Below, one piece after another: positions 1 through 32,596 of a DNA stretch of 34,535 nt. The position numbers and the translations under genes were made by a program. The notes under the pieces are model-generated. The model searched no databases, was not told where the DNA came from, and saw only the letters and a list, made by a program, of their open reading frames with translations. Origin of the DNA: an uncultured Granulosicoccaceae bacterium. Its GTDB lineage: Bacteria > Pseudomonadota > Gammaproteobacteria > Granulosicoccales > Granulosicoccaceae. The stretch lies in the NCBI GenBank assembly GCA_937928685.1, contig CALGJU010000044.1:1-34535 (forward strand), read 5' to 3'. Every line of letters begins with the position of its first letter. The first letter of the stretch is position 1.

Positions 1-160
1 AGTCTGTCCGAGAACTAGGGTCGTAGCGAGGTTGTGAGATTTTGAGTCAGATATTTCGATCGTTAGAGGCGAATAGTTATTCTTCTTTAACGAAAAGGAT
101 CGTAATAGCTGACCAAAAGATCGCGACCGCAGTAGATCCTAGTTCTCGGACAGCCTCCTA
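1..160. repeat. Palindromic MITE-like element, copy 1 (left end cut by window)
   Basis: This is a non-coding element that is a long imperfect inverted repeat. The outer arms (4-16 and 141-153) pair perfectly, and inner arms near 40-50 and 109-118 pair again around an AT-rich centre. A second copy at 12621-12780 aligns without gaps over 160 positions with 13 differences. The right end reads CTCCTA and runs into the next element. No ORF of note lies inside. I infer a non-autonomous mobile element or a structured repeat; the parent transposon is not in the window. Confidence 0.8.
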
Positions 161-324
161 GGAGTCTGCGCGGCAGAACCTCCACTACTGCGAACGCGCC
201 CTGCCGGTGCGTTTTTATCGATCATTTTCGTTGCATATGAATAACTATGCGCCGTAAATGATCGTAAAAACGCCCTCGCCATGGCACGTTCTCGCTACGT
301 GGACTTCTACCGCGCAGACTCCTA
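159..324. repeat. Second palindromic MITE-like element
   Basis: The terminal inverted repeats at 159-178 and 305-324 match at 19 of 20 positions. Inside, GCGTTTTTATCGATCATTT near 212-230 is answered by a near-complementary run around 258-277, so the whole element folds into one hairpin. It begins at the TA where the preceding element ends, and both share the terminus TAGGAGTCTG. It lies just upstream of the dehydrogenase gene and leaves only about 78 bases for that gene's promoter. The family is not identified. Confidence 0.75.
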
Positions 325-402
325 ACAATCCACTGCCAGGTACTGGTAATTTGCTTATAAAAAACCGCCCACTACGCGTGTCAGTGACACGGAGGACTAC
401 TC

Positions 403-1473
403 ATGAGATACACAGCAGACAGCCTGACAACGCTGGCTCAATCGATTCTAACGGGATTCGGCTGTGATCGAGATGAAGCAGACATTGTTGCTGATCATTT
501 AATTAGAGCCAACCTTGCAGGCCATGACTCACATGGCATCGGCATGTTGCCGGTATACGGCATGCAGGTTAAGGATGGCAACCTGATCCCGAACCAAACG
601 CCAGTCTTTCTACCCGATTGCGGTGCGGTAAGTGTGGTTGATGCTAAATGTGGATTCGGTCACCGCATGGCGCTGCTCGCGCTCGATCATGCCATTGAGA
701 CCTGCCGTAAACACAGAGTAGCGGTTCTGGGGTTGCGCAATAGCGGCCACGTATCGCGCACCGGGCACTACTCAGAGTACTGCGCTCAGCAAGGGTTGAT
801 TTCCATTCACTTTGTTAATGTATGGGGTCACGCGCCACTTGTTGCAGCCCATGGAAGCAGCCAGGCCGGCTTTTCCACCAACCCTATCAGCATCGGTATT
901 CCAGTCGACGGCAAGGCCAAACCAATGCTGGATCTAGCCACCAGTACTGTGGCGTTTGGAAAGGTGAGAGTAGCCCACAACCGCGGTGAAAAAATACCCA
1001 TTGGCTGGGTTATTGACGATGCCGGACAACCGACCGACGACCCCACCCCTATCTGGGAAAACAGAACCGGTGCGCTCACCCCGTTTGGCCAACACAAAGG
1101 CTCCGGCCTGGCTATATTCGTCGAATTATTGGCAGGTGCAGTTGCAGGCAAAGAAACAGTCGCCACGGGCAATCACATACCTAACGGCGTGTACAACAAT
1201 ATGTTTTCCATACTGATCGACCCGCTTGCTTTTGACTCGCAAGAGCAGATCGAAGAACGCGTATTAGAGTTCTACCAATCAATAAAATCCAGCCGCCCCG
1301 CAGGCGGTGTCAAGGAAGTGCTGATGCCCGGTGAACCAGAGTTACAACATAAGGCAGAGCGCGAGGCGAAAGGTATAGAAGTAGATTCAGAGACCGTAGA
1401 ACAACTGATTTCAATAGGTAACCACTTTGATCTTAACGAATCATTGCTGAGAAGCCAGTTAGAACCGGTATAA
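403..1473 (+). CDS. Ldh2/malate dehydrogenase-family NAD(P)-dependent oxidoreductase
   Basis: This 356-residue protein has the length and layout of the Ldh2 family (malate/L-lactate/ureidoglycolate-type dehydrogenases), which reduce 2-oxo acids or cyclic imino acids with NAD(P)H and are unrelated to classical Rossmann-fold LDH. Visible landmarks are GHDSHGIGMLP near residues 40-50 with the family's active-site histidine, NSGHVSRTGHYSE in the middle, and GQHKGSGLA in the C-terminal third. The ATG at 403 is supported by GGAGG at 391-395, seven bases upstream. The substrate cannot be told from sequence. The gene stands alone between the palindromic elements and a long gap. It is probably cytoplasmic and dimeric, as is usual for the family. 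Confidence 0.9.
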   Translation: MRYTADSLTTLAQSILTGFGCDRDEADIVADHLIRANLAGHDSHGIGMLPVYGMQVKDGNLIPNQTPVFLPDCGAVSVVDAKCGFGHRMALLALDHAIETCRKHRVAVLGLRNSGHVSRTGHYSEYCAQQGLISIHFVNVWGHAPLVAAHGSSQAGFSTNPISIGIPVDGKAKPMLDLATSTVAFGKVRVAHNRGEKIPIGWVIDDAGQPTDDPTPIWENRTGALTPFGQHKGSGLAIFVELLAGAVAGKETVATGNHIPNGVYNNMFSILIDPLAFDSQEQIEERVLEFYQSIKSSRPAGGVKEVLMPGEPELQHKAEREAKGIEVDSETVEQLISIGNHFDLNESLLRSQLEPV

Positions 1474-1897
1474 CTGAATCACACTTATTAACTTTGTTGT
1501 CCGGAAACAAAATAAAACAATCTATTTATCATCGGCTTACTTGCGTCAGGCGAACATTGCCTGTGGGACAGGCGCGGGCCTTGCTATTTCAGCTCGGTAA
1601 GCAAGCATGTAGTCCACTACTTTTTGTAGGATAATAGTCCTATGAGTGTCGCTGTCGCACGTTACGCCACAACGATTCAGTTTCAATTAAATAGTACATC
1701 TGAGATTATTCATCGTTTGGCCACCACAACACTTACAACTCGCTTTTTCAACGCATCGTACAGAGCTTGAATATGTCCAGCCTACTATTGGCTTGCCGTT
1801 CTCTGGATGGCCGAATTCCGGTCAGCCGTTCGAGCGATCGCCCTCTCATCAGCGCTACAGCTGTCATGCCTCAGCCTGACCAAACTGGTGTCAGCGC
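1474..1897. other. 424-base intergenic region with small hairpins
   Basis: No convincing gene is seen. GCCTGT-GGG-ACAGGC at 1559-1573 forms a hairpin, nested between GCTTAC (about 1534) and GTAAGC (about 1597), so 1530-1605 could be a structured 3' end of the dehydrogenase transcript. There are two short ORFs. One, from 1641, has no ribosome binding site. The other (1773-1901, 42 codons) overlaps the next start as ATGA, but its product resembles nothing I know. Confidence 0.5.
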
Positions 1898-2839
1898 ATG
1901 ACCACAATGCTAGTGGCATCGAGTGGCGGGCACTTTACACAGCTGGCGGAATTGTGGCCACGGATTGAATCTGTCAGCCAGGATTGCGTGTGGGTCACCT
2001 TTGATTCGCCGCAAACCCGTTCAATGTTGAAAGATCAGCAAGTAGAATACGTGCCGTATATTAAGCCACGCGGCCTCGCCTCAGTGCTGCGCAACGTCCC
2101 GCAAGCATTCAAGCTGATAAGAAAGTACAACGTAGACGCCGTCATCAGCACCGGTTCGGCGATCGCTTTAGCCTATCTGCCTTATAGCGCGATACGTGGA
2201 ATACCTACCCACTATATTGAATCAGCAACGCGGGTTGAAGGACCGTCCGTTACCGGTAAAGCCTTAAGCCGTGTACCGGGAATCAAGTTTTACAATCAAC
2301 ATGAAGCCTGGTCTAACGATCAATGGAAATTTCTCGGCTCAGTGTTTGATGGCTTTGATGCGGTGCCGCTGGCGCAAAAACCACAAAAAATCAGGCGAGC
2401 AGTGGTGTCAGTCGGCACCATGGAAGACTACAGCTTCCGGGATTTTTTCGTGCGTTTGGCCGACTACCTGTCAGAGGCAGACTCAGTCCTTTGGCAAACG
2501 GGTTCTACCGACGTGTCTGATTTAATTATTGACGGCAAAGAAGTTGTACCGGCACATGAGCTGGAGCAGGCAATGCGCGAAGCCGATGTAGTTATTGCTC
2601 ATGCAGGAACAGGCACAGCGCTCACGTCTCTTCGAATGGGCAAACGCCCCATCCTAGTGCCACGCGACAGCTCACACGGTCAGCACATTGATGATCACCA
2701 ATTTCAAACCGCCGCACTACTCGACAAAATGGGCCTGGCTTTAAGCCGTAAGGTGGAAGATCTGACCAAAGCAGATCTACTTGAAGCCGCGGGATTCGAA
2801 GTGATTCGCTCAAACACCCCGAGAATGCTTCACCTGTAG
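1898..2839 (+). CDS. Fused Alg14/Alg13-type (PssD-PssE-like) glycosyltransferase
   Basis: This 313-residue protein joins two halves that are often separate. The N-terminal half begins with the SSGGH motif (residues 8-12) of Alg14/PssD/EpsF membrane-recruiting subunits. The C-terminal half (from about 165) resembles Alg13/PssE and the C-terminal domain of family-28 glycosyltransferases, with VVIAHAGTGTAL and the donor-binding-like GKRPILVPR. Such enzymes transfer a sugar from a UDP-sugar to a lipid-linked acceptor at the inner face of the membrane in polysaccharide assembly. No other capsule gene is adjacent. The start could be 1898 or 1907; neither has a strong ribosome binding site, and the 1898 ATG overlaps the stop of a 42-codon ORF. 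Confidence 0.82.
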   Translation: MTTMLVASSGGHFTQLAELWPRIESVSQDCVWVTFDSPQTRSMLKDQQVEYVPYIKPRGLASVLRNVPQAFKLIRKYNVDAVISTGSAIALAYLPYSAIRGIPTHYIESATRVEGPSVTGKALSRVPGIKFYNQHEAWSNDQWKFLGSVFDGFDAVPLAQKPQKIRRAVVSVGTMEDYSFRDFFVRLADYLSEADSVLWQTGSTDVSDLIIDGKEVVPAHELEQAMREADVVIAHAGTGTALTSLRMGKRPILVPRDSSHGQHIDDHQFQTAALLDKMGLALSRKVEDLTKADLLEAAGFEVIRSNTPRMLHL

Positions 2840-2946
2840 CTGCATCCCGGTTCGCCGTCATCAAGCACGCGCTCCGGCCAACCGTTTAATGCGCTCATCG
2901 GCGCATGAATTGCAGTAACAAGCGCTCTCTACATGCCAGGCTGACC

Positions 2947-4365
2947 ATGAGTATCCGCTCTCATCACCATCAATTAAGGCCGCTATTTCTTCGCGCCAAA
3001 TTGGCCCGTGCATCATTTTGCGCCATGTTCCTGGGAGTAGCGATGACTGTTGCCACACCGACTTTAAGCGCTGTAAAAACCAAACCGTATTCAGAGTTCG
3101 TCAAAGCTTTAAACATTATCGAGCAAACACAACTCACCATATTCACAGAATCCCCACCACCGGCCAAAGACGAAATCATTGAAAGGTTTAATGCCCGGGT
3201 AAAAAAAGCACAAGCTGAGCTCGATAGCGAGGATGCAAACTACAGCAAAGATCTGGATAAAAAACGTATTGCGATTATGCGTGAGCTACTTTTCGACACA
3301 GTCGATCAATACAACGATCAATACGCCAACTATATCTATCCGGAAGCTCTTAAAAGATACAACGCCAGACGCAACGGCAAATTCGTTGGAGTCGGCTTAA
3401 AGTTCAGAGCGGTCAACGACAGCTATCCACTCGCCATCGGGCCGCTAACCGGAGGCCCAATGGACGGCAAGGATATTTTGCCGGGTGATAAGCTAGTGAG
3501 TGTTGATAACAAACCACTGGCAAAGCTCAGTTCCAGTGACATTGTCAAAGCACTAAAGGGACCCGAAAACTCTATCGCAACAATAGAAGTACTGCGCGGC
3601 GAATCAACGCATACCATTGATGTAAACCGTTCGGCCGTGGAATTGCACTATGCAGACGCCGAGCTGCTGCAAAGTAACATCGGATACATCAAGGTCAGCC
3701 GCTTCGGCAGCAAGACACATATCCGTGTAGAAAACCTGCTGACTACATTGATAAATCAGGGTGCGACGAGTTTTATACTTGACCTACGCGATAATCCCGG
3801 TGGATCCACCCGTGCAGCACGCGCCATCGTATCCATGTTCAGTACAGAGAACGACATGTATTGTGAAAGGTATAAAACCGGTGCATTCAAACAACTACCG
3901 AGGCATGGCGATCATAAAACCGATCTGCCATTGGCTGTACTGATCAACGGTAACAGCATGTCCTCTTCTGAAATTGTTGCGGGCGCTATAAAAAGTTATG
4001 AACGCGGCTTCATCATAGGATCACCTTCATTCGGCAAAGGACTGGTGCAAAAAGTATTTAATTTAGCCCCGCCCCTTGGCGGTGCGGTGCGAACCACGAT
4101 CGCAGTCTTTGGAAGACCCGATCATAAACTCATTCACGGCGCGGGTATCGTACCGGACTTCTACGTCGAGACCGATAGCGATTTCATGTTCCGCCGAACC
4201 GGCTCACTGAATATTTCAGCCGCGGCACGGGCATTTCAAAGAACACTGCTTGAGGAAGATGTGAAAAAGGACCACCCCGATCAGGCCGAAGCGTTTATTG
4301 CTGCGAAAGACTTGCAATTGCAGACCGCGATCAACAAACTATTGCCTCTGATCAACACGCAATAA
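2947..4365 (+). CDS. S41-family (C-terminal processing) periplasmic peptidase with PDZ domain
   Basis: This is a serine protease of the CTP/tail-specific family. A basic N-terminus and hydrophobic stretch ending TPTLSA form a signal peptide, so it acts in the periplasm. A PDZ domain follows (about residues 145-225, with ILPGDKLVSVD), then the catalytic core with LDLRDNPGG, NSMSSSEI and FGKGLVQ. Numbered from this start, the probable nucleophile is Ser339 and the general base Lys364; their 25-residue spacing is that of Prc and plant CtpA. I chose ATG 2947, which has AGG at suitable spacing; an in-frame ATG at 2905 would add 14 residues. The substrate is unknown. DUF2288 follows 27 bases downstream. 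Confidence 0.9.
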   Translation: MSIRSHHHQLRPLFLRAKLARASFCAMFLGVAMTVATPTLSAVKTKPYSEFVKALNIIEQTQLTIFTESPPPAKDEIIERFNARVKKAQAELDSEDANYSKDLDKKRIAIMRELLFDTVDQYNDQYANYIYPEALKRYNARRNGKFVGVGLKFRAVNDSYPLAIGPLTGGPMDGKDILPGDKLVSVDNKPLAKLSSSDIVKALKGPENSIATIEVLRGESTHTIDVNRSAVELHYADAELLQSNIGYIKVSRFGSKTHIRVENLLTTLINQGATSFILDLRDNPGGSTRAARAIVSMFSTENDMYCERYKTGAFKQLPRHGDHKTDLPLAVLINGNSMSSSEIVAGAIKSYERGFIIGSPSFGKGLVQKVFNLAPPLGGAVRTTIAVFGRPDHKLIHGAGIVPDFYVETDSDFMFRRTGSLNISAAARAFQRTLLEEDVKKDHPDQAEAFIAAKDLQLQTAINKLLPLINTQ

Positions 4366-4392
4366 AAATCCATCCGGTGGATAGTAAAAACC

Positions 4393-4722
4393 ATGGACAT
4401 CGAAGATAAGCAATCGCCAGAGTCAATCGCTGAAGCGTTGAACGAACAAACCGGTATTCTAGGTTGGCAGGAACTGGTCAAACACTTCGCCCGCGGTGTG
4501 GTCGTTGCTGTCGAAGCTGACCTCGATCTGGTGAAAGTAGCGCATAGCATGTCTGTCGATAACACCGCTGAAATACAACAATGGCTCGCTACAGGCGCCG
4601 TAAGGCGAGCCAGTGATGATGATGCTCGTGAGTGGAATCGCGACAATCCGGAATTCTGGTGCATGGTCGTCGCGCCATGGGTTCTGGTGCAGAAAAAAGG
4701 TTCTGCAAAAGAGGTCCACTAA
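4393..4722 (+). CDS. DUF2288 family protein
   Basis: This small soluble acidic protein of 109 residues matches the pattern I know for DUF2288: an early GWQEL segment, VEADLDLVKVA, QQWLATGAV, and the C-terminal VVAPWVLVQKK. The family has no established biochemical function and is found mostly in Proteobacteria and cyanobacteria. It starts 27 bases after the S41 peptidase stop and is probably co-transcribed with it. GGTGGA lies upstream of ATG 4393. Confidence 0.8.
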   Translation: MDIEDKQSPESIAEALNEQTGILGWQELVKHFARGVVVAVEADLDLVKVAHSMSVDNTAEIQQWLATGAVRRASDDDAREWNRDNPEFWCMVVAPWVLVQKKGSAKEVH

Positions 4723-4820
4723 GTCACAGATGCTTTTGCTTAAAAGCACTAATACTTGCAATGCTATTAACTGGCCACCATTAGTTTTACACTAAAGTCC
4801 GGCTAAACAAGAGTCATATC

Positions 4821-5402
4821 ATGGGCGAGAAAATCCGCTGCAACTGGTGTGTAGGCAATGACCTCGACCGAACCTACCATGATGACGAATGGGGCGTGCC
4901 AGTCTACGACGATCAGAAACTATTTGAAATGCTTATACTCGAAGGCGCACAGGCCGGAGTCAGCTGGCATGTTGTGTTACAAAAGCGCACCCACTATAAC
5001 AAAGTATTTCTCAACTTTGACCCGCACAAGCTTGCACGGCTAAGTGATAAAAAGCTCGAAAAAGCACTTACCGATCCGGGATTAATTCGCAACAGACTAA
5101 AAATATACTCTGTCCGAAGCAACGCCATTGCATGTAAGGAAGTTCAAAAGGAATTCGGCTCTTTTGCAGAATACATCTGGAGTTTTGTCGATGGTAAACC
5201 CATACAGAACCAATGGAAAAAAAGCAGTCAAGTACCGGCAAAAACAGACATCAGCGCTAACATGAGCCGTGATTTAAAAAAGCGTGGCTTTAAGTTTATC
5301 GGAGAGACCATTTGCTACGCCTATATGCAAGGCATCGGCATGGTCAATGATCACACCGTCGATTGCTTTCGCCATAAAGAAATCAAGAAGATAAAAACGT
5401 AA
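4821..5402 (+). CDS. tag: DNA-3-methyladenine glycosylase I
   Basis: This 193-residue enzyme removes 3-methyladenine from alkylated DNA, the first step of base-excision repair. It is a full-length Tag protein of the helix-hairpin-helix superfamily. The zinc ligands of the family are all present: Cys7 and His20 near the N-terminus, His178 and Cys182 near the C-terminus. YHDDEWGVPVYDD and LEGAQAGVSW (with the base-pocket glutamate) are typical. It has its own 98-base upstream gap and may be separately transcribed. A hairpin follows at 5406-5423. Confidence 0.95.
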   Translation: MGEKIRCNWCVGNDLDRTYHDDEWGVPVYDDQKLFEMLILEGAQAGVSWHVVLQKRTHYNKVFLNFDPHKLARLSDKKLEKALTDPGLIRNRLKIYSVRSNAIACKEVQKEFGSFAEYIWSFVDGKPIQNQWKKSSQVPAKTDISANMSRDLKKRGFKFIGETICYAYMQGIGMVNDHTVDCFRHKEIKKIKT

Positions 5403-5405
5403 CTA

Positions 5406-5423
5406 TTCAGGGCACGCCCTGAA
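5406..5423. terminator. Hairpin between convergent tag and S9 peptidase genes
   Basis: TTCAGGG and CCCTGAA form a seven-base-pair stem round CACG, between two convergent genes. No T-run of five or more follows on either strand, so it is a weak or factor-assisted end at best. Confidence 0.4.
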
Positions 5424-5439
5424 AAGCTACAAAGAAAAG

Positions 5440-7368
5440 CTACAAAAATACCAATGGCTCTGCTTGCTTCCCTTCTTTTTGGGCGGCCTCAAAGTTAAAT
5501 ACCGAACCGTAGAACAACAGCTCTGCATCAAAGGCTCGCGTAATAGTTTCAGATTTTCTAAATCCATGCGCTTCGCCTTCAAAGGGGATATACGCAACAG
5601 GCACATTGTTAGCGAGCAGTTTTTCGATCATTGCCTCCGCCTGACTGGGCGGTACTACTTTGTCATCCAGACCCTGCAAAAACAACACGGGAGATTGAAT
5701 AGCGCTTGCATGATTTAACGGTGAGCGTTGTTCGTATAGTTCTTTTTCTTGCGGATAGGGACCGATCAAACTATCAAGATAACGTGATTCAAACTTGTGA
5801 GTATCGGTTGCTAAGGCGGTAAGATCTGTCACACCATACAAACTGGTGCCTGCTTTGAAAGAGTCTGTATGTGCCAATGCGGCCAATACGGTAAAACCAC
5901 CCGCACTGCCGCCACGTATGGCTACACGCTCTTTATCTACCAAGCCACGTTCGATGAGATACCGTACCCCAAAATCACAATCCTCGACATCGGCAACTCC
6001 CCATTGAAGTTTGAGTCCCTCGCGGTATTGTCGACCAAATCCTGTGCTGCCACGGTAATTCACGTCGAACACTGCTATACCACGATTGGTCCAGTATTGA
6101 ATTTTCAAACTCAAACTATCAGCCGTGGCTGATGTGGGTCCACCGTGAATCATCACCAATAGAGGCGGTAACTCATTTTCCATACCTTGATACTCTGCAT
6201 GGACAGGCGGGTAATAAAAACCGTGTGCGATCTGATCATCACCGGTTTTATAACTGATCGGTTCAGCGATCGAAAAATGTGCTCTGTCTATTGGGATGGT
6301 CGATGAAACACACACTAGAGTCTCGCTACCAAGATCACCGGTATAGACCGCAGGAAATTCAGTTGAAGATTGCGCGATCAGGCAGTACTTTCCGCCCTCC
6401 GTACGAATGGAATGGTAATGGCTGTGCTGTCGATCAAGGTCATTCAGACGACCGGAATTTAAATCAATCGTTGCAAGACTTTCAGCACCGGAGTGACTGT
6501 ACGAGGTGAGTAGCGTGTCCGCATCAAGAAATCCATATCGAGTCATTCCAAATTGCCATTGAGGCATGCCGAACTCGGCATCCAGAGAACAAACACACTC
6601 TGCCGCACCTCGAATCAATCGATAAATATTCCACCAATTGGATTTATCTGAAACAAAATATAACTCGCCGGTCGGGCTCCACTCCGGTTGAAAAACAGAC
6701 TCGTCGTTTCCACCGGCAACCACTTCGGCACCACCGAGCGTGTTGTCATTGTTAAAATCTGCATGCCATAGACTGGTCTGATCCCAGGGCATATCTGGAT
6801 GCATCCAGGACAACCAACAAAGCTGTTTACCGTCTGGCGAAAAAGAGGCGGATGAGTAAAAGTCCTGACCTTCGTGAAGGGTGGTCACCTCACCGCTAGC
6901 GGTATCCACTGCGACCAGCCGGTTAACCGGTTCATCTCCTTTGTCACCGTGTTCCTCACTAATGGCCAGTAGTGTGGAATTCTTCTTGTTATAGGCCAGA
7001 TCTGCAAAACGAAGCGTAGATGAACTGGTTATCCTGGAAGTTTCAAGCGCCTGATTTACGCAGTAGATCTGTTGGTCTGAGTGATTGACAAAGAACAACC
7101 CGACCGGTGTCGGCAGGTAACTCGCTCCACCATACTCGTGTACCCGGCTGCGACAACTATACTCCGCAGATAACAGCGCTTGCTTTTCACCTGCCTGATC
7201 CATTCTCACTATCACCGAGCGACCTTGCTCTTGCGGTCGTGATTCAACCCAGTAAACCTGCCCGTCGAAGAGCCTTGCCTCTGACAATCCAATAGTACCG
7301 GCCGTCATTAGCTCTGTGGTAATTTCGGAAGGCCACGAGCCATGCGACGCGTTTTTTTTATTCGCCAA
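5440..7368 (-). CDS. S9-family prolyl oligopeptidase/dipeptidyl aminopeptidase-like peptidase
   Basis: This 642-residue serine peptidase has an N-terminal beta-propeller (about residues 20-380, with repeated FSPDGKQLCWLSW-type blades) and a C-terminal alpha/beta-hydrolase domain. The catalytic triad is visible: Ser488 in RGGSAGG, an Asp near 568-569 in QGLDDKVVP, and His601 in EGEAHGFR. HGGPTS and NYRGSTGFGRQY are family signatures. No signal peptide is seen, so it is probably cytoplasmic and degrades short peptides. The start is TTG at 7366-7368 with GGTGA upstream. It begins 32 bases after the stop of the small acidic gene, so it may share a transcript with the EndoU pair. Confidence 0.9.
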   Translation of the reverse strand: MANKKNASHGSWPSEITTELMTAGTIGLSEARLFDGQVYWVESRPQEQGRSVIVRMDQAGEKQALLSAEYSCRSRVHEYGGASYLPTPVGLFFVNHSDQQIYCVNQALETSRITSSSTLRFADLAYNKKNSTLLAISEEHGDKGDEPVNRLVAVDTASGEVTTLHEGQDFYSSASFSPDGKQLCWLSWMHPDMPWDQTSLWHADFNNDNTLGGAEVVAGGNDESVFQPEWSPTGELYFVSDKSNWWNIYRLIRGAAECVCSLDAEFGMPQWQFGMTRYGFLDADTLLTSYSHSGAESLATIDLNSGRLNDLDRQHSHYHSIRTEGGKYCLIAQSSTEFPAVYTGDLGSETLVCVSSTIPIDRAHFSIAEPISYKTGDDQIAHGFYYPPVHAEYQGMENELPPLLVMIHGGPTSATADSLSLKIQYWTNRGIAVFDVNYRGSTGFGRQYREGLKLQWGVADVEDCDFGVRYLIERGLVDKERVAIRGGSAGGFTVLAALAHTDSFKAGTSLYGVTDLTALATDTHKFESRYLDSLIGPYPQEKELYEQRSPLNHASAIQSPVLFLQGLDDKVVPPSQAEAMIEKLLANNVPVAYIPFEGEAHGFRKSETITRAFDAELLFYGSVFNFEAAQKEGKQAEPLVFL

Positions 7369-7400
7369 TTAATTCACCGGTTGGTCGCTTGTGTACTGTA

Positions 7401-7721
7401 TCAACTCAGCGCTGCATCGCCACTGACAAAATCCAGCCACGCTCGCATTTGTTGCAGCATTTCGTCTCTTGGCAATCGCCTGTCTGGCGCTTCATCATCA
7501 AAGTTCGCCTCTATCGTCACCGTTTTGGTTGAAATACTCAGTGAGTGGGCGTTGCCGTTAAACTCAGAGCGAACCCCTTCATCTTCCAGCAGGGCGATAA
7601 GATCGGAGACAACCCGGGTCGAGCCCTGAAGATCAGTCTGAATAAAAGTAGCCAGTCTTTCATCCTGTCCACGAACACACGCATTGCCCTCATCATCACG
7701 ATAGAACTCGAGATCAGCCAT
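7401..7721 (-). CDS. Small acidic protein, YacL/UPF0231-like, candidate EndoU partner
   Basis: This 106-residue protein is strongly acidic (about 22 Asp/Glu against 10 Lys/Arg) with no signal peptide or membrane segment. The opening LEFYRDDEG, the middle HSLSISTKTVTIEAN and the closing WLDFV recall, distantly, E. coli YacL (UPF0231), a family of unknown function; I rate that link as weak. Its AGGA ribosome binding site overlaps the stop region of the upstream EndoU gene, only nine bases away, so translation is probably coupled. Size, acidity and placement are what one expects of an immunity protein for a basic nuclease. That role is inferred from context. Confidence 0.72.
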   Translation of the reverse strand: MADLEFYRDDEGNACVRGQDERLATFIQTDLQGSTRVVSDLIALLEDEGVRSEFNGNAHSLSISTKTVTIEANFDDEAPDRRLPRDEMLQQMRAWLDFVSGDAALS

Positions 7722-7730
7722 AGTTATTTC

Positions 7731-8315
7731 CTAGTAAACCGGGAAAGCAGTGTTGATACCACCACGATTTGTCGTGTATCCCTGAATGTTAAATCCGTGA
7801 CCGGAAGGGCCTTGCCAAGGCTGTTTCTTTTTATTTGAGCTGTTTCTATAGGCATTGAGTATTGCCTGTGTCACTTCATCTGCGGACATATTGTCAGGAA
7901 AAAAGCTTGAGAACTTTTCTTTCCACTGACCATTGTCACTAACAGCAATGATCGCTGTATAGACACCTTGCCGATTCGGTTTATCCCGTATCTTCACCAG
8001 CTTAGCCCCGGCCGGATCTACACCACCGGGTCTGGAATGAAACCCGACCGGTTTACCTTTTCGATTTATCTCGCCCTCAAATACATGGTGCAGATTTATT
8101 TCAGGAGATGTTTTCGACCACTTGCTTCCGGAGTGGTACGCCGCCGGTTTCTGACTGTTGTTATTAGTTGTGTTGCTGTTTCCGGTGGAGCTCACCGTAC
8201 TGTTTGAATCTCCCAGCCCGAGTTCGCTCAGATCAATCCCGAGCTTCTCAAGATTCACACCCAGCGCCATTAACACTGCGCCAATAATAGGGAGAAGTAG
8301 CTTTTTGTCTAGCAT
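7731..8315 (-). CDS. Membrane-anchored bacterial EndoU-domain nuclease (toxin-like)
   Basis: This 194-residue protein has one N-terminal hydrophobic segment (about 5-20), a Ser/Thr/Asn-rich linker (36-56) and a C-terminal domain (about 72-194) that I recognise as bacterial EndoU. Matching stretches are HHVFEGEINRKGKPVGFH, GVYTAIIAV, FSSFFPDNMSADEV and the terminal GGINTAFP. EndoU enzymes cleave RNA with two histidines and a lysine; His76 or His77, His93 and a lysine near 132-134 are candidates. In CDI and related toxins this domain is a C-terminal payload; here it stands alone behind a signal anchor. The adjacent small gene is the obvious immunity candidate. A dyad-flanked promoter lies upstream (8345-8370). 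Confidence 0.8.
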   Translation of the reverse strand: MLDKKLLLPIIGAVLMALGVNLEKLGIDLSELGLGDSNSTVSSTGNSNTTNNNSQKPAAYHSGSKWSKTSPEINLHHVFEGEINRKGKPVGFHSRPGGVDPAGAKLVKIRDKPNRQGVYTAIIAVSDNGQWKEKFSSFFPDNMSADEVTQAILNAYRNSSNKKKQPWQGPSGHGFNIQGYTTNRGGINTAFPVY

Positions 8316-8344
8316 GCAGCGTTAGGACCCTGAAGAGCTATTAG

Positions 8345-8370
8345 TTAACTCATTTATTATATTGAGTTAA
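8345..8370 (-). promoter_or_regulatory. Perfect dyad enclosing a TATAAT box upstream of the EndoU gene
   Basis: TTAACTCA (8345-8352) and TGAGTTAA (8363-8370) are perfect inverted repeats ten bases apart. On the minus strand the AT-rich spacer contains a consensus TATAAT (8361-8356), about 40 bases before the EndoU start codon. No good -35 hexamer is visible at 16-18 bases. This is what an operator of a dimeric repressor or an activator-dependent promoter looks like. It also lies 3' of the SH3-protein gene and could form a weak stem there. Confidence 0.5.
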
Positions 8371-8446
8371 GTCTGTGGGAAGCACCAAAGCGAGTGCGAA
8401 CGGGATTCAATTGCACGCATATTAAACACGTGCTACTTCCGGCTGT

Positions 8447-9160
8447 TTACTTTTGATGAGGTCCGACTAAACGCTCGTGTACCCACCCAATCTTTCCAGA
8501 GGTTCCATAAGCCCCTACATGGACCCACTTACCCTCGCGTTTGAATTCCATCAATTCCTGCCCTTGCGCCAGTTGCAACACGACAGGGTGGTCGATCGAC
8601 GGGCCGTCACGCATATTTACCTTGTCTTTCATCACCACAAGCATCTCACTGTCGAGCTGCCCGGTAGAAACTTCCAGCACCCCGTCCAGCTCAACGCTTT
8701 TATCAATTGCCGGTATCGCGACTTCTACTGCAGGAACGCCGGCAGTGGCGAGAATAGTTTCCGCCAGAGCGACCTGCTCGTTCCGGTCTGAAGACTTTTC
8801 CAGATCCAGACCGGATGACAGGTTGGCGTTTACTATAGTGGCAGACGGAACAACATCACTGGGTCCGTTGTCTACGACTGGATCTTCTGTCAACTTAGGA
8901 ATCACTGTTGACACTTCAGCCGTTGGCAACTGAGTGTTAACAGCGGCAACCGATTCTGTCGGCGCTACTGCTGCGATGTCATCACCCACAGCTACCACTG
9001 AGCTGGAAAGCGCAGCAGTATCTGACACTGCCGGCACCTCAATTTGTTCCAACGTTGCTTGCACTGGCTGATCTTCATTGGCTTGATTGAAAAGCCTGCC
9101 GCCAAACAGCCCAAGCGCAATCAAACCAACGCCCGCAACACTTAATATTATTCTCAGCAT
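8447..9160 (-). CDS. Membrane-anchored SH3-domain protein
   Basis: This 237-residue protein has an N-terminal hydrophobic segment (about residues 3-22) that anchors or exports it, a long low-complexity linker rich in Val, Ala, Ser, Thr and acidic residues (about 30-165), and a C-terminal bacterial SH3 domain (about 172-232) with VNMRDGPSIDHPVVLQL and GWVHERLV. SH3_3 domains of this kind usually bind cell-wall peptides or partner proteins in the periplasm. No enzyme domain is present. The linker would let the domain reach the peptidoglycan. It is divergent in sequence and its exact role is unknown. Confidence 0.8.
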   Translation of the reverse strand: MLRIILSVAGVGLIALGLFGGRLFNQANEDQPVQATLEQIEVPAVSDTAALSSSVVAVGDDIAAVAPTESVAAVNTQLPTAEVSTVIPKLTEDPVVDNGPSDVVPSATIVNANLSSGLDLEKSSDRNEQVALAETILATAGVPAVEVAIPAIDKSVELDGVLEVSTGQLDSEMLVVMKDKVNMRDGPSIDHPVVLQLAQGQELMEFKREGKWVHVGAYGTSGKIGWVHERLVGPHQK

Positions 9161-9248
9161 AATGCCTCTATATACTTTTTATCTAAGAAACGTGTGGCAA
9201 ACCCGCAACGCTACGCCTAACTGTAAACGACAGCGGGACCACGGGCTG

Positions 9249-9266
9249 AAAATACACCAAGGTGTA
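9249..9266 (-). terminator. Possible terminator of the ABC exporter gene
   Basis: TACACC and GGTGTA make a six-base-pair stem around AA at 9253-9266. On the minus strand it is followed by TTTT, 25 bases after the ABC exporter stop. The stem is short, so this is a weak call. Confidence 0.35.
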
Positions 9267-9290
9267 ATTAAGCGTGCCAGTTACCGGGCA

Positions 9291-11198
9291 CTACTGCTGG
9301 GCGAGAAAGCCGCCGGATTGCCGACTCCATAGCTCCGCATACAATCCGTCACTGGCTATCAACTCGGAATGACTTCCCATTTCAAGAATCCGCCCGGCAT
9401 CCATAACGATGAGTCGATCCATCGCAGCAATGGTCGATAAACGATGGGCAATTGCCATCACCGTTTTACCATTCATCAAGTCCTGCAGCTTCTCCTGAAT
9501 GGCCGCTTCCACTTCCGAATCGAGCGCCGATGTCGCCTCATCAAGTATTAAGATCGGTGCGTCTTTAAGAATCACTCGTGCGATCGCAATGCGCTGCCTT
9601 TGCCCGCCGGAAAGCTTTACACCACGCTCACCCACGTGGGCGTCGTAGCCCTGTCTGCCTTCGGAATCCACCAAACCGGGAATAAACCTATCCGCCTGCG
9701 CTAACCCGGCCGCGTGTAGTACTTGCTCTTCACTGGCATCGGGTCGACCATAACTAATGTTGTCACGAATTGATCGATGCAGAAGTGAAGTATCCTGCGA
9801 CACCATGGCAATTTGAGCGCGTAAACTCGCTTGGGTAACAGATGAAATATCCTGCCCATCAATCAGTATACGACCGCCATCAAGATCATAAAATCGCAGC
9901 AACAGGTTAACCAGAGTGGATTTCCCTGCACCGGATCGGCCCACCACACCAATCTTCTCACCTGGCGCTACTCTAAAAGTGAAATCCCGGATGACCCTGC
10001 CTTTGCTCGCGTCAGTGTCATCTGTCACGGTGTCAGATTCTAAAGTGGTGTCAGTGTCTGGCTCCGCATAGCGAAACTGCACTGCATCAAACTCCAGCGA
10101 TGCAGAGACAACTGATAACTCACCGGCATTATCAGCATCAGTTATCACATTATCAACCGCGATAGTTTCAATCCCATTTTGTACCGTGCCTATACTCTCA
10201 AACAGCGAAGAAATGGTTCGCAAAATCCAACCGGACATCTGGTTTAATCGAAGAATCAATCCATTGGCAATAGCAATTGCACCCACCGATATTGACCCTT
10301 GCTGCCAAAACAATATAGACAACCATGCAGTAGACAGAATCAACAAGGTATTCATCACCACCAAAGAAAACAGCATCCGTAAGATGGCTCGCAGTAACGT
10401 TCTAAGTGCATTGGTATGGCGTTCAAAGCCAACTGACACAAAGGACTCCTCACGCTCTGCGTGCGCAAACAATTTCACCGCTTGTATATTGGTGTAGCTG
10501 TCAACAATTCTTCCGGTTAACGCGGAGTTAGCTTCAGACACCGAACGCGACAACCCGGCCACCGGTGGCATCATCCTCACAATCACCACAAGGTATCCCA
10601 CGGTCCAGATAAGTACCGGAATCATCAACCGCCAGTCTATATCGAGAAACAACCAGACAATTCCCGCAAGGTATATAAACAGCAACCAGGCACCATCAAG
10701 CACATTCAATACGGTTTCACGAAACGAGTTGCCGGTCTGCATCACTTTCTGAGCAATACGACCTGCGAAGTCACTTTGAAAGTAATTCAAACTTTGACGC
10801 ACAACATAGCGATGATTCCGCCATCGCACGGTATTAGACAGACCCGGTGTCAAAGACAAAGTAATCAGGCAGCGGGTAATAAACATACTTGCAGGCCGCA
10901 CGAATGCAATGATGAATGTCATCATCAGCAAACTGATCCCGTGTACCTGATAAAAATTGTCCGGCTCAGTGCTTGTCATCCAATCGACTATCCGCCCGAG
11001 GTAGACGTATAAGAAGAGCTCCGAGATAGAGGCCACGCTGGTAAAAAAAACAGTCACGAGTAACAACCAACGCACCGGCCACAGGTAGTGCATGAAAAAA
11101 TCCCACGTCCCTTTCGGCGGTTGTTGTACCGGAACTTTCTCAAGTGGGTCTATCAGATTTTCAAAAAAAGAAAACAAATTAATCCTTAGTAGCAGCAC
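9291..11198 (-). CDS. ABC exporter, fused membrane and ATPase domains
   Basis: This 635-residue half-transporter has six membrane helices (about residues 35-330) and a C-terminal ATPase. The Walker A motif GRSGAGKST, the signature LSGGQRQ, Walker B ILILDEATSALD and the switch AHRLSTI are all intact, so it should hydrolyse ATP. It belongs to the MsbA/multidrug exporter type and works as a dimer in the inner membrane; its substrate is unknown. An acidic insertion rich in Asp and Thr sits just before the ATPase core. The start is uncertain: GTG 11198, or TTG at 11177, which has a better AAGGA. The MFS gene lies 27 bases upstream on the same strand, suggesting one operon. Confidence 0.88.
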   Translation of the reverse strand: MLLLRINLFSFFENLIDPLEKVPVQQPPKGTWDFFMHYLWPVRWLLLVTVFFTSVASISELFLYVYLGRIVDWMTSTEPDNFYQVHGISLLMMTFIIAFVRPASMFITRCLITLSLTPGLSNTVRWRNHRYVVRQSLNYFQSDFAGRIAQKVMQTGNSFRETVLNVLDGAWLLFIYLAGIVWLFLDIDWRLMIPVLIWTVGYLVVIVRMMPPVAGLSRSVSEANSALTGRIVDSYTNIQAVKLFAHAEREESFVSVGFERHTNALRTLLRAILRMLFSLVVMNTLLILSTAWLSILFWQQGSISVGAIAIANGLILRLNQMSGWILRTISSLFESIGTVQNGIETIAVDNVITDADNAGELSVVSASLEFDAVQFRYAEPDTDTTLESDTVTDDTDASKGRVIRDFTFRVAPGEKIGVVGRSGAGKSTLVNLLLRFYDLDGGRILIDGQDISSVTQASLRAQIAMVSQDTSLLHRSIRDNISYGRPDASEEQVLHAAGLAQADRFIPGLVDSEGRQGYDAHVGERGVKLSGGQRQRIAIARVILKDAPILILDEATSALDSEVEAAIQEKLQDLMNGKTVMAIAHRLSTIAAMDRLIVMDAGRILEMGSHSELIASDGLYAELWSRQSGGFLAQQ

Positions 11199-11225
11199 CT
11201 TACCTGCGGGGCTTTATTCACAGCG

Positions 11226-12452
11226 TTATCGCGCAGCCAATTCATCCTGCAAACGAGGCAACGGCTTTTCGTTTATAGGCCAGTGCACGATAGCCGCTAC
11301 CAGGCCGAAGAAAACCCCGGCCCACCACATGCCATTGTAAGAGCCACTTGAATCATAGATGCGCCCACCCATCCACACGCCGATAAAGCTACCAACTTGA
11401 TGACTAAGAAAGACCACACCGAACAACGTGGCAAGGTAACGCACACCAAATACCTGAGCGACAATACCGGTGGTCAATGGCACGGTAGAGAGCCACAACA
11501 AACCCATGAGCGCCGAAAACCCATAGATAACCATTTCAGTTTTTGGCAGCACCAGCATTGCGGTAATAACAATAGCCCGGGCAAGATAGATAAAACTCAA
11601 GCTCGATTTTTTACTGAACCTTTGCCCTGCCATGCCGGATAAAAATGACCCGGCAATATTAAACAAACCAATAATCGCCAGTGCCCACGCGCCCACATGC
11701 GCCGCCAGCCCCATATCTTTCACATAAGACGGAAAGTGCACGGTGATAAACGCCACATGAAAACCGCAAACGAAAAAACCTAGAGTCAGTAGCACAAAGC
11801 CTTTATGGCTTATTGCCTCTTGCAGTGCACCACGAAGTGATTGCGCATCGTCGGTACTACCGGCGGCACTGTTAGCGCCAGGCAACATCATCGCCAGCGG
11901 AATCAATACCATCACAATGGCGGCTTGCAGTAACAACGCATCCTGCCAACCGAACGCACTGATAAAACCCTGGCTGATGGGTGAAAACAACACCTGCCCG
12001 AACGAACCCGCTGCGGTCCCAAGACCAAGCACCATCGATCTTTTTTCCGGCCCAACCACACGAACCATCGCGGCCATGGCCAGAGAGAACGCCGTAAAGG
12101 CCACACCGGTCCCGGTAAGCAATCCGGCGGTCAGGTGCAGCGCACCGGACGTTTCAGCCACCGACATGCCATAAATTCCCAGGGCGTACACCAACGCCCC
12201 GAGTAGTATTACTTTTGAGGCACCAAAGCGATCCGCTATTGCACCCGCTATCGGCAGGCCTATCCCCCACATCAAATTTTGAACCGCGAGCGCGAAAGAA
12301 AAAGTTTCCCGGCTCCACCCGCGTGCTGATGTCATCGGATCCAGATACAAACCAAAGGTTGACCTTGCTCCAAATCCGACAATAGCGATAAGGCATCCGG
12401 CGATGATCACAACGGTCGGGGTTCGCCATGTTGAAACTGTAGGAGTAGTCAT
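11226..12452 (-). CDS. MFS transporter, OFA/monocarboxylate-like
   Basis: This inner-membrane carrier of about 408 residues has twelve predicted helices. Motif A appears as GAIADRFGASK (residues 70-80). GARSTFGLYLDP and GWSRETFSFALAVQN near the N-terminus resemble the oxalate:formate/monocarboxylate branch of the major facilitator family; the substrate is unknown. I chose ATG 12452, preceded by GAGAG. An in-frame ATG at 12554 would add a 34-residue cysteine-rich, non-hydrophobic extension that looks non-coding. It is probably the first gene of an operon with the ABC exporter. Confidence 0.85.
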   Translation of the reverse strand: MTTPTVSTWRTPTVVIIAGCLIAIVGFGARSTFGLYLDPMTSARGWSRETFSFALAVQNLMWGIGLPIAGAIADRFGASKVILLGALVYALGIYGMSVAETSGALHLTAGLLTGTGVAFTAFSLAMAAMVRVVGPEKRSMVLGLGTAAGSFGQVLFSPISQGFISAFGWQDALLLQAAIVMVLIPLAMMLPGANSAAGSTDDAQSLRGALQEAISHKGFVLLTLGFFVCGFHVAFITVHFPSYVKDMGLAAHVGAWALAIIGLFNIAGSFLSGMAGQRFSKKSSLSFIYLARAIVITAMLVLPKTEMVIYGFSALMGLLWLSTVPLTTGIVAQVFGVRYLATLFGVVFLSHQVGSFIGVWMGGRIYDSSGSYNGMWWAGVFFGLVAAIVHWPINEKPLPRLQDELAAR

Positions 12453-12616
12453 TGCGCTCTCGAGAATTTTTAGCTTTGATTTTGCTCCTGTACACACGCA
12501 ATGGCAATCGATAACACAGATCTGTGCAGCTTCATCAACAAACCTGTTTTTCACCGCAGGTGGCGAGCCTTCATACAGAAAGGCAATTCTGCCAACGCCG
12601 TGCTTTTGATAATTTA
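12453..12616. other. Upstream region of the MFS gene
   Basis: No gene is supported here. The open frame that continues the MFS gene upstream is cysteine-rich and unlike the family. The region separates the MFS gene from the palindromic element and should contain the MFS promoter; I see no clear consensus. Confidence 0.4.
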
Positions 12617-12780
12617 CAGGAGCTTGTCCGAGAACTAGGGTCGTAACGAGGTGGTGAGATTTTGAGCCAGATATTTCGATCGTTAGAGGCGAATAGTCAC
12701 TCTTCTTTAACGAAAAGGATCGTAATAGCTGGCCAAAATATCGCGACCGCAGCAGATCCTAGTTCTTGGACAAGCTCCTA
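12617..12780. repeat. Palindromic MITE-like element, copy 2
   Basis: This second, complete copy of the element at 1-160 is bounded by CAGGAG on the left and CTCCTA on the right. The terminal inverted repeats, AGGAGCTTGTCC against GGACAAGCTCCT, are perfect over the outer 12 bases; further in, a G-C pair of copy 1 has become G-T. No obvious target duplication is seen beyond the termini. It sits between the divergent MFS and DUF4864 genes, where it could alter both promoters. Confidence 0.82.
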
Positions 12781-12842
12781 GCAGCCTTTATCTACAGTCG
12801 ACTATCTGGTACAACAAAGCTCCCCCCTCTCTGGATGAGCCA

Positions 12843-32083: not shown

Positions 32084-32254
32084 CTGAACTCCCCAGGCAT
32101 CCAATTTAATTAGATATCAAATTTACTTAAGACCCAAGCGATGAACTCACACGACCGCCGCATCTGAAAGGCTTGCTGTGGTTGGGATCTGCAATGAGAT
32201 AACTGGTAAATGCAAAGAACCTACCAACCCTTGCAGCATATGCCTGTAGATAGC

Positions 32255-32523
32255 CTAGTGTACTGGAACAAATATATTGCCCATATGAGTCAATCAATCA
32301 AAGTGTCTAATTTTAATAGATAAATCGGGACAACAGTAAGTCATAGTGGCTGCAACGAATGTGGTGTGCACTTTGATTAATCGCCCCTGCGGGAGCTCGG
32401 CATTTGACTTGCCACAGCGTTGTAGCTCTTGAAAAGAGAATAACTATTGCCTGCGAGCTTCGCCTTGTTGCAAACCAAATGACGAACTCTCAAATGCACA
32501 CTCTATTTGGTCCAGTACACTAG
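32255..32523. mobile_element. 269-base element with 20-base terminal inverted repeats
   Basis: CTAGTGTACTGG at 32255 is mirrored by CCAGTACACTAG ending at 32523; the full arms match at 19 of 20 positions. The outer CTAG or TA may include the target duplication, as in IS5- or IS630-type insertions. There is no transposase ORF inside, so it is non-autonomous. Internally there are partial inverted repeats (AATCAAAGTG near 32292 against CACTTTGATT near 32370). It lies 74 bases before the permease start and may carry or block that operon's promoter. The family is not identified. Confidence 0.75.
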
Positions 32524-32596
32524 CCTCTCTGATCGATTGACTTCTATTAGCTTGCGACGCAGTATTATTTCCTGGATTTACACAAAAAAGCATCAA

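What the first reader, a model, noticed from the sequence alone, without database searches (positions are those of the whole stretch)
1..12780. Two copies of a 160-base hairpin element differ by compensating base-pair changes
Copies 1-160 and 12621-12780 align without gaps with 13 differences. Several fall in paired positions and keep the pairing. Counted from the start of each copy, 4:153 is C-G in one and T-A in the other; 47:112 is T-A against C-G; 3:154 is a mismatch in copy 1 but C-G in copy 2; 10:147 is C-G turned to G-T wobble. Two full double substitutions in so few changes suggest the fold itself (RNA or single-stranded DNA hairpin) is maintained, not just the termini.
Basis: seen in the sequence. 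Interest (0 to 1): 0.75.

Follow-up and report, generated by a model that had tools for sequence, protein, structure and literature searches.

The report
Widespread mobile hairpin repeat with conserved fold
A short (about 160-letter) piece of hopping DNA, found in many copies across many kinds of Proteobacteria, keeps one particular folded shape although its letters change, which suggests that the shape itself may help it to spread.

Summary
In detail: 1-160 and 12621-12780 differ at 13 positions, with two clean compensatory pairs. They belong to a large family: 41 places in this genome and matches in 84 of 369 genomes drawn from the class. A third, divergent member abuts copy 1 at 155-324, minus strand. 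Covariation is real. Of 25 significant column pairs in 77 diverse copies 19 lie in the structure, but those copies were picked with the structural model. In sets gathered by sequence alone few pairs are significant (3 and 1), all in the structure. The internal loop is nearly invariant while most stems drift. One strand seems favoured (G-U over A-C); without structural picking the excess is moderate (45 to 24) and not clearly above unpaired controls. Recent changes break pairs, older ones keep them (P 2e-5), so selection seems to act on spreading lineages. Ends are inverted repeats in CTAG-like sites; filled and empty sites exist; no autonomous partner or Rfam family was found. It works like a structured MITE (ERIC-like); I infer that the folded strand matters for propagation. 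Whether RNA or single-stranded DNA is open.

The parts
1..164 (+). Copy 1 of the hairpin element; 5' end cut off by the start of the contig; its right CTAG is shared with the neighbouring element
   Evidence: cmsearch R1 172.1 bits, E 9.8e-46; fold -79.3 kcal/mol, z -9.3
155..324 (-). Third, divergent member of the same family (63% identical to copy 1), opposite orientation, abutting copy 1 through a shared CTAG
   Evidence: cmsearch R1 126.6 bits, E 3.7e-33; fold of the minus strand -103.3 kcal/mol, z -15.4; five further places in the genome, two of them full length
12617..12784 (+). Copy 2 of the hairpin element, between a leftward MFS transporter gene and a rightward DUF4864-like ORF (divergent genes)
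   Evidence: cmsearch R1 170.9 bits, E 2.1e-45; fold -80.1 kcal/mol, z -9.9; neighbours by Pfam (DUF4864 below its cut-off)
12618..12642 (+). Left terminal inverted repeat / outer stem of copy 2; left flank is ACAG (degenerate CTAG)
   Evidence: the repeat finder I3, 92% complementary to 12755-12779; helix 1
12755..12779 (+). Right terminal inverted repeat / outer stem of copy 2; right flank CTAG at 12778-12781
12642..12650 (+). 5' side of the near-invariant internal loop (consensus CGTAGCGAG; here CGTAACGAG)
   Evidence: loop columns have mean top-base frequency 0.97 in 77 copies, against 0.60 and 0.69 in the adjoining stem parts
12748..12755 (+). 3' side of the same internal loop (consensus CGCAGTAG; here CGCAGCAG)
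   Evidence: mean top-base frequency 0.96
12686..12714 (+). Conserved apical domain (consensus GAGGCGAATAG...TATTTAACGAA)
   Evidence: apex columns mean top-base frequency 0.84 in 77 copies; absent from the 105-bp variants
22..30 (+). Copy 1, 5' side of the internal loop (CGTAGCGAG)
   Evidence: read from sequence; alignment
128..135 (+). Copy 1, 3' side of the internal loop (CGCAGTAG)
   Evidence: read from sequence; alignment
66..94 (+). Copy 1, apical domain
   Evidence: read from sequence; alignment

Best explanation
A family of non-autonomous mobile elements (structured MITEs) spread across Pseudomonadota. SHOWN by sequence: about 160-170 bp, too short for a transposase; terminal inverted repeats of consensus TAGGAGNCTGTCSGA; CTAG-like flanks; filled and empty versions of the same duplicated region; either orientation, mostly between genes; adjacent copies sharing one CTAG; covarying stems around near-invariant internal-loop and conserved apical motifs. 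INFERRED: an unidentified transposase acts in trans on the ends and inserts at CTAG-like sites with a 4-bp (or 2-bp TA) duplication, most likely a DDE enzyme. INFERRED: the folded single strand (a transcript, or DNA single-stranded at the replication fork) is needed at some step of propagation, so lineages that lose the fold stop leaving descendants while resident copies decay. The 105-bp variants suggest that outer stem and internal loop suffice for mobility in some genomes and that the apical domain is a separate module.
For: 41 distinct places in the own genome, my count of 63 listed matches less 22 opposite-strand duplicates. 84 of 369 genomes of the class draw and 43 of 398 of the phylum draw (at most 7 places scored per genome). 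Covariation. Loops more conserved than stems. Strand: in 30 consensus sequences from copies not chosen by the model, standing pairs hold 163 G-U against 31 A-C cells and single steps run 45 to 24 (P 0.015); the + strand folds better in 30 of 30; internal branches of 174 such copies 67 to 35 (P 0.002). Propagation-level selection: pairs kept or broken, internal 152/113, terminal 293/408, P 1.9e-5; same sign in 114 copies (P 9e-4) and the 77 (P 2.8e-4). Mobility: four filled/empty comparisons; base before TA is C in 89%, after TA is G in 81% of 260 elements, random beyond; identical non-CTAG flanks 8 against 3.2 expected, P 0.01; 105-bp variants. No orientation bias to genes, 42 against 49.
Against: The large G-U excess in the 77 copies (179 to 62) is inflated: they were mostly the best matches of a model that rewards G-U over A-C. 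Without that, all 174 copies give 259 to 203, no more than unpaired columns (134 to 120; P 0.43); internal branches alone P 0.10, consensus set P 0.08. With sequence-gathered sets only 3 and 1 pairs reach significance. No autonomous element with these ends was found. A classical DDE transposase has no known need for a folded strand (general knowledge). All four empty sites are duplicated regions within the same genome, not related strains, and in three the target is not exactly CTAG. No transcript evidence. The 105-bp variants show that the apex is not strictly needed. Terminal-branch noise could add to the internal/terminal contrast.
Confidence: 0.5

Rival explanations
1. An ordinary MITE: only the terminal repeats matter. 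The two arms stay complementary because replication template switching within imperfect palindromes copies one arm onto the other; no selection on the fold.
For: Whole-length palindrome; double changes are frequent (271 WC-to-WC events in 77 copies; 88 in 30 consensus sequences); without structural picking the G-U excess is not clearly above unpaired columns. Quasi-palindrome mutation by template switch is an established process (PMC3820800, listing and start of abstract only).
Against: Template switching should also erase the non-complementary loops, yet these are the most conserved part (0.96-0.97). It predicts equal G-U and A-C, against 45 to 24 and, in cells, 163 to 31.
Confidence: 0.2
2. 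A host-useful RNA element: in transcripts it acts as a processing or stability hairpin, as reported for ERIC and Correia/NEMIS, and selection acts at the host gene.
For: Tendency to strand-specific pairing; closeness to genes (median 31 bp to stop-facing ends, n 149, against 96 bp to start-facing ends, n 157); precedent in ERIC and NEMIS (PMC2229807 and PMC10969869, passages).
Against: No orientation bias relative to neighbouring genes (42 to 49; convergent 29, divergent 33). Pair-breaking changes predominate on terminal branches. Copy number ranges from no match in 3 genomes of the same genus to tens, with about 100 in N. halophila.
Confidence: 0.13
3. A REP/RAYT-like system: a Y1 (HUH) transposase recognises the folded single-stranded DNA and cleaves at CTAG; the right CTAG would belong to the element and no duplication would occur.
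For: Would explain selection on a single-stranded fold and the absence of an autonomous copy with the same ends. Y1_Tnp (PF01797) is found in 75 of 84 element-bearing and 165 of 285 other genomes of the class draw (P 2e-8).
Against: The association has no control family and may only reflect load of mobile DNA or assembly completeness. In 20 of 20 fetched Y1 loci of element-bearing genomes no element lies within about 2 kb (five loci are cut shorter by contig ends). In six of six loci examined the gene is bracketed by unrelated inverted repeats, whereas RAYT genes are flanked by their REPs (PMC2817692, abstract passage). Symmetric ends and equal non-CTAG flanks fit a duplication better.
Confidence: 0.12

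Closest known systems
ERIC/IRU (enterobacterial repetitive intergenic consensus, 127 bp)
   Same: Intergenic, multi-copy, TIR-bearing palindromic element with a long stem-loop transcript, TA at the termini and no autonomous partner named (PMC2229807, passages); reported RNA-level effect on mRNA stability
   Different: Here 160-170 bp, CTAG-centred target, other end sequence, other hosts. No blastn match in 5,426 E. coli genomes with the window copy or the G412 copy, though K-12 carries about 30 ERICs (PMC10969869, passage). Conserved internal-loop and apical motifs.
YPAL/RU-2 (about 168 bp) and Correia/NEMIS (107-155 bp)
   Same: Size, hairpin transcript; for YPAL evidence of mobility from filled and empty sites (PMC2229807, passages)
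   Different: YPAL lacks terminal TA and has duplications of 3-26 bp; Correia is listed for Neisseria (same passages). Sequences were not compared by me.
REP/REPIN with RAYT
   Same: Palindromic, abundant, mobilised in trans; fold of a single strand would matter
   Different: REPs are 20-40 bp, GTAG- or CGTC-tagged (PMC3733652, title and start of abstract in a listing); here full-length inverted repeats, and no element beside 20 of 20 Y1 genes
DUF772/DDE insertion sequences of the same genus and of Nitrosomonas (L325 in G006, L329 in G017, L327 in N. nitrosa); the labels IS5-like and IS1182-like are recalled
   Same: Ends TAGCAGGCTGTTGAAAAA, TAGAGTCTGCTGAA and TAGAGCCTACTCAGAA begin much like TAG(G/C)AGNCTGT; DUF772 plus DDE domains in L325 and L329
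   Different: Only about the first 9-11 bases are alike, with a one-base gap in two of them; the rest of the end and the interior differ, and 4 of 9 element-bearing genomes searched have no DUF772 match

Membership tests
MITE | Short (under about 500 bp), no transposase gene | tested here: met
   160-170 bp; 105-bp variants; no ORF of 100 aa or more overlaps the three elements
MITE | Terminal inverted repeats | tested here: met
   Within-copy arms of 22 and 25 nt, 91% and 92% complementary. The 260 ends were selected by the end pattern itself, so they only add the flanking C and G
MITE | Target-site duplication / mobility | tested here: inconclusive
   Four filled/empty comparisons outside nested arrays, each between duplicated regions of one genome, one exactly CTAG; identical non-CTAG flanks 8 against 3.2 expected, P 0.01; length of duplication (2 or 4 bp) not settled because CTAG is palindromic
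MITE | Related autonomous element sharing the ends | tested here: not met
   None in 20 of 20 fetched regions of N. halophila (a sample of the unpaired, exact-match ends listed), nor among PF13546, PF01609 and PF05598 loci (several cut by contig ends). Several accepted bacterial families also lack one (PMC2229807, passages), so this does not exclude membership
ERIC | 127-bp ERIC sequence in enterobacteria | tested here: not met
   No blastn match to 5,426 E. coli genomes with two queries; an ERIC itself was not scanned with the covariance model
REP/RAYT | 20-40 bp palindrome with GTAG or CGTC tag | tested here: not met
   160-170 bp, CTAG at both ends
REP/RAYT | Cognate Y1 transposase gene flanked by the repeat | tested here: not met
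   0 of 20 Y1 loci from element-bearing genomes hold an element within about 2 kb or up to the contig end
Any Rfam 15 family | Match at the gathering score | tested here: not met
   None in the window. In 13 element loci at E up to 1 the only matches over an element were to a microRNA precursor family, in L373, at 31 bits against a cut-off of 83
Structured RNA (covariation-supported) | Significant covariation above phylogeny | tested here: met
   77 copies, mostly model-picked: 25 of 13,695 column pairs at E under 0.05, 19 in the structure, 4 adjacent, 2 elsewhere. Sequence-gathered sets: 3 of 13,041 and 1 of 14,365, all in the structure. Own implementation, not R-scape
Structured RNA | Transcribed | not testable with these tools
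   No RNA-seq available; single-stranded DNA would give the same covariation

The most novel reading that the evidence does not exclude
A phylum-wide class of bacterial mobile elements whose substrate for mobilisation is a specific three-dimensional fold of a single strand (possibly their own RNA, a bacterial counterpart of SINEs), with a conserved internal loop as the recognition module and a separable apical module; the linear terminal repeats are only half of the signal.
Probability: 0.22. Interest if true: 0.85.

Novelty: new variant of a known kind. Interest (0 to 1): 0.6.

Why it matters
Palindromic repeats such as ERIC have long been suspected to act as RNA, and how they move was stated as open in 2007 (PMC2229807, passages). 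This family offers covariation evidence for a maintained fold in hosts of several orders (68 of 272 genera in the class draw) and a sign of where selection acts: on lineages that spread rather than on resident copies. That makes the question testable with a covariance model, strain comparisons and a transposition assay. It would also add a common RNA-like family that matched nothing in Rfam 15 at its cut-offs in the loci tested.

Tried and rejected
Autonomous partner: ends searched in N. halophila, N. nitrosa and a Nitrosomonas MAG and in five further genomes (both listings truncated). Transposase families PF13546 (7 genomes), PF01609 (5) and PF05598 (9), their loci checked for matching ends. 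All loci then held were scanned for paired ends 650-2600 bp apart around an open frame: L325, L329 and one pair of hairpin elements around a gene. Other IS ends seen (L309, L326, L327) do not match, L327 being somewhat alike.

Replication-strand bias: the listing first looked as if elements pointed one way per chromosome half. Strands from the covariance model are mixed; the pattern came from the truncated listing.

RAYT link: a strong co-occurrence of Y1_Tnp (75 of 84 against 165 of 285) was followed to the loci; none of 20 had an element, so it is kept only as a rival.

Strand test, weakened on checking: my first figure (179 to 62, P 2.4e-14) rests on copies mostly picked by the covariance model. 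Repeats without that picking give a smaller excess that is not clearly above unpaired columns. I lowered the main confidence (0.58 to 0.50) and the novel reading (0.25 to 0.22), and raised the template-switch rival (0.12 to 0.20) for this reason.

Host-gene orientation: no bias. Viral contigs: none with one exact pattern. Phages: none with the window copy. Plasmids: one full copy in Pseudomonas sp. MPC6 and one partial match in a Halomonas plasmid. Literature: six sequence words gave 13 papers; in the one opened, PMC5453526, the word lies in a primer, the other 12 were judged by title and start of abstract only. Topic searches (at most 10-15 hits listed each) showed no paper that I recognised as describing this family; ISfinder was not available.

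Rows dropped: one search kept 129 of 172 places as full length, 114 after removing duplicates. A1 used 46 of 60 representatives; the 14 left out are mostly indel-rich or decayed copies, which favours the structure, and the L297 row is cut short by my coordinates. One search kept 77 of 131 matches (one truncated row removed, the rest opposite-strand duplicates); the 58 loci in it were the best matches of their genomes. One search used 183 of 265 elements (enough flank): 23 lay inside ORFs, 7 lacked a neighbour on one side, 153 were counted. One search used 174 of the 175 copies (one outside the locus range set in the script). One search used 157 of 195 copies, dropping clusters of fewer than 3 unless they were a genome's only copies.
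Full report
WHAT WAS CHECKED. By simulation at least two compensatory doubles in 13 changes have a chance of 0.99%. Both copies fold far more stably than shuffles. The window has no Rfam match at gathering scores.

FAMILY. The own genome (a 4.2-Mb draft in 332 contigs, 77% complete) gives 63 matches; I count 41 distinct places, 30 of them long or full (40 of 59 candidates were scored, so this is a lower bound). Within the taxonomic family 12 of 48 genomes match. They lie in Granulosicoccaceae MAGs, Nitrosomonas (including the isolates N. halophila Nm1 and N. nitrosa Nm90), Chromatiales, Methylococcaceae/Methylobacter, one Hyphomicrobiales MAG and one unclassified gammaproteobacterial MAG. From 46 copies aligned by sequence alone I built a covariance model. 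It matches 84 of 369 genomes drawn from the class (68 of 272 genera) and 43 of 398 drawn from the phylum, 36 of these in one family outside the class. Both searches scored at most 7 candidates per genome with strict filters. Copy number is often high: 104 plus 93 terminal-repeat matches in N. halophila and 89 model matches in one closed genome (a few are the same place on the other strand). In the window the model finds copies 1 and 2 and a third member at 155-324 on the minus strand, 63% identical to copy 1. It abuts copy 1 and shares its CTAG, so the contig begins with two adjacent elements.

STRUCTURE. One long hairpin: an outer stem that is also the terminal inverted repeat, an asymmetric internal loop CGTAGCGAG / CGCAGTAG, an inner stem, and a small apical hairpin set in the motif GAGGCGAATAG...TATTTAACGAA. 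Among 77 diverse copies (lowest pairwise identity 46%, median 65%) the mean top-base frequency is 0.88 in the first 15 columns of the end, 0.60 in the rest of the outer stem, 0.69 on the 5' side of the inner stem, 0.96-0.97 in the loop and 0.84 in the apex. In 46 copies 42 of 65 pairs show double changes, and 263 cells are double-changed against 92.9 in shuffles and 42-67 in registers slid by 1-3. My phylogeny-aware test (Fitch reconstruction, substitutions re-placed along the tree, APC-corrected G statistic; R-scape-like but not R-scape) gives, in the 77 copies, 25 of 13,695 pairs at E below 0.05: 19 in the structure, 4 adjacent to a pair, 2 elsewhere.

ASCERTAINMENT. Most of those 77 copies were the best matches of their genomes to a model that rewards pairing, so I repeated the tests on sets gathered by BLAST, sequence pattern or ends only. 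In 30 consensus sequences 3 of 13,041 pairs are significant, and in 174 copies 1 of 14,365, all in the structure; 26 and 16 of the 70 best-scoring pairs are structure pairs against about 0.4 expected. Covariation is thus present without structural picking, but far fewer pairs are individually significant.

WHICH STRAND. In 114 copies from the genus and family the + strand folds at -81.2 kcal/mol on average and the - strand at -60.5; in the 30 consensus sequences -87.9 against -68.3, lower in 30 of 30. Single steps from Watson-Crick to G-U against A-C number 179 to 62 in the 77 copies (P 2.4e-14; unpaired columns 55 to 84), but model picking favours this. In the 30 consensus sequences they number 45 to 24 (P 0.015; against unpaired columns 15 to 18, Fisher P 0.08), hardly changed when pairs are chosen from the minus-strand fold (44 to 24); standing cells are 163 G-U and 31 A-C. 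In the 174 copies they are 67 to 35 on internal branches (P 0.002; against unpaired P 0.10) and 192 to 168 on terminal ones; overall 259 to 203 is no different from unpaired columns (P 0.43). My reading is that one strand's fold is favoured, with moderate support. G-T is also the milder mismatch in DNA, so this would not separate RNA from single-stranded DNA.

WHERE SELECTION ACTS. In the 174 copies internal branches keep 152 and break 113 pairs, terminal branches keep 293 and break 408 (Fisher P 1.9e-5). The 114 copies give 84/66 and 182/271 (P 9e-4), the 77 give 195/56 and 307/168 (P 2.8e-4). The simplest reading is that resident copies decay and lineages with an intact fold leave more descendants; noise on terminal branches may add to it. 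The loops argue against pure arm-to-arm copying, which should make them complementary.

MOBILITY. The 260 elements were selected by their end pattern (up to 3 mismatches). The base before TA, outside the pattern, is C in 89%, and the base after TA on the right is G in 81%; beyond that composition is flat. Of the 260, 121 have CTAG on both sides. Four filled/empty comparisons were found outside nested arrays: L172/L158 (empty CTTG), L077/L081 (CTAC), L096/L037 (TAAG) and L473/L443 (CTAG). Each compares duplicated regions within one genome at 75-91% flank identity, not related strains. Non-CTAG flanks are identical on both sides in 8 elements against 3.2 expected (P 0.01; reverse-complement control 7 against 4.7, P 0.18). 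This favours a target duplication but does not settle its length. Adjacent copies that I looked at share a single CTAG or its variant (for example L031, L045 and L135); L148 is an exception. Elements lie in either orientation: 42 co-directional with both neighbours, 49 opposite, 29 between convergent and 33 between divergent genes; 23 of 183 lie inside an ORF of 100 aa or more by a crude caller. Variants of about 105 bp (12 fetched in G405 and 2 in G172, chosen by length) lack the apical domain but keep the ends and internal loop; L469 has lost part of its 3' side. So the apex is not strictly needed for amplification there.

PARTNER. I found no autonomous element. All 20 regions fetched around unpaired exact ends in N. 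halophila hold hairpin elements there. Searches for three transposase families in 5-9 genomes gave insertion sequences with partly similar ends: TAGCAGGCTGTTGAAAAA (L325), TAGAGTCTGCTGAA (L329) and TAGAGCCTACTCAGAA (L327). They hint at a DDE enzyme of that kind. A Y1 (HUH) transposase is commoner in element-bearing genomes (75 of 84 against 165 of 285), but no element lies beside any of 20 such genes, and in six of six loci examined the gene is bracketed by unrelated inverted repeats. I could not run a control family.

CLOSEST KNOWN. It works like ERIC, YPAL and Correia/NEMIS: short, palindromic, thought to be mobilised in trans, and able to form a long stem-loop (PMC2229807 and PMC10969869, passages read). 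It is not ERIC by sequence (no match in 5,426 E. coli genomes with two queries), and not a REP (PMC2817692 passages; PMC3733652 title and start of abstract). What is unusual is the breadth, a covariation-supported fold around near-invariant loops, and the sign that selection acts through propagation. Whether it is in ISfinder or in subscription papers I could not check; my searches of the held library listed no description that I recognised.

VERDICT. I file it as a new variant of a known kind (structured MITE). The step from 'the pairing is maintained' to 'the fold is the substrate of mobilisation' is inference.

Noticed in passing
window 32248-32530: Another inverted-repeat element (42-nt arms, 81% complementary, ends CTAGTGTACTGGAACAAA). 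A like end sequence replaces the start of a truncated copy of the hairpin element in L019 and lies at the left of one in L087, so the two families form chimeras.
   Followed up: partly
L102:463-584 (also L242:605-726): A 121-bp element with the same terminal repeats but an unrelated interior, inside a tandem array of hairpin elements in G006.
   Followed up: no
window 15461-16032: Three direct repeats of 170 nt, spaced 201, inside the ORF 14665-17406 (73-76% like the reference copy).
   Followed up: no
L210:2737-3353: Three anti-hemB RNAs (RF02837; 64, 51 and 45 bits against a cut-off of 49.5, so the third is below it) spaced about 268 nt in N. halophila, outside the Burkholderia of the family's name.
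   Followed up: no
L373:1746-1900: Group II intron domain V-like sequence (34.6 bits, cut-off 40) between two hairpin elements in G515.
   Followed up: no
L475 (G048:C91:35309-35741): A 433-bp copy in N. halophila whose apical domain is split by another large palindrome.
   Followed up: no
L476 and L477 (G172): Tandem duplications of 238 and 298 bp that join a hairpin element with GTAGGAGCGGC-type palindromes.
   Followed up: no
flanks of the 114 copies: Left flanks drift to CCAG (21 of 114) and right flanks to CTGG (12 of 114), the two faces of CTAGG to CCAGG; very-short-patch repair would act this way (recalled, not tested).
   Followed up: no
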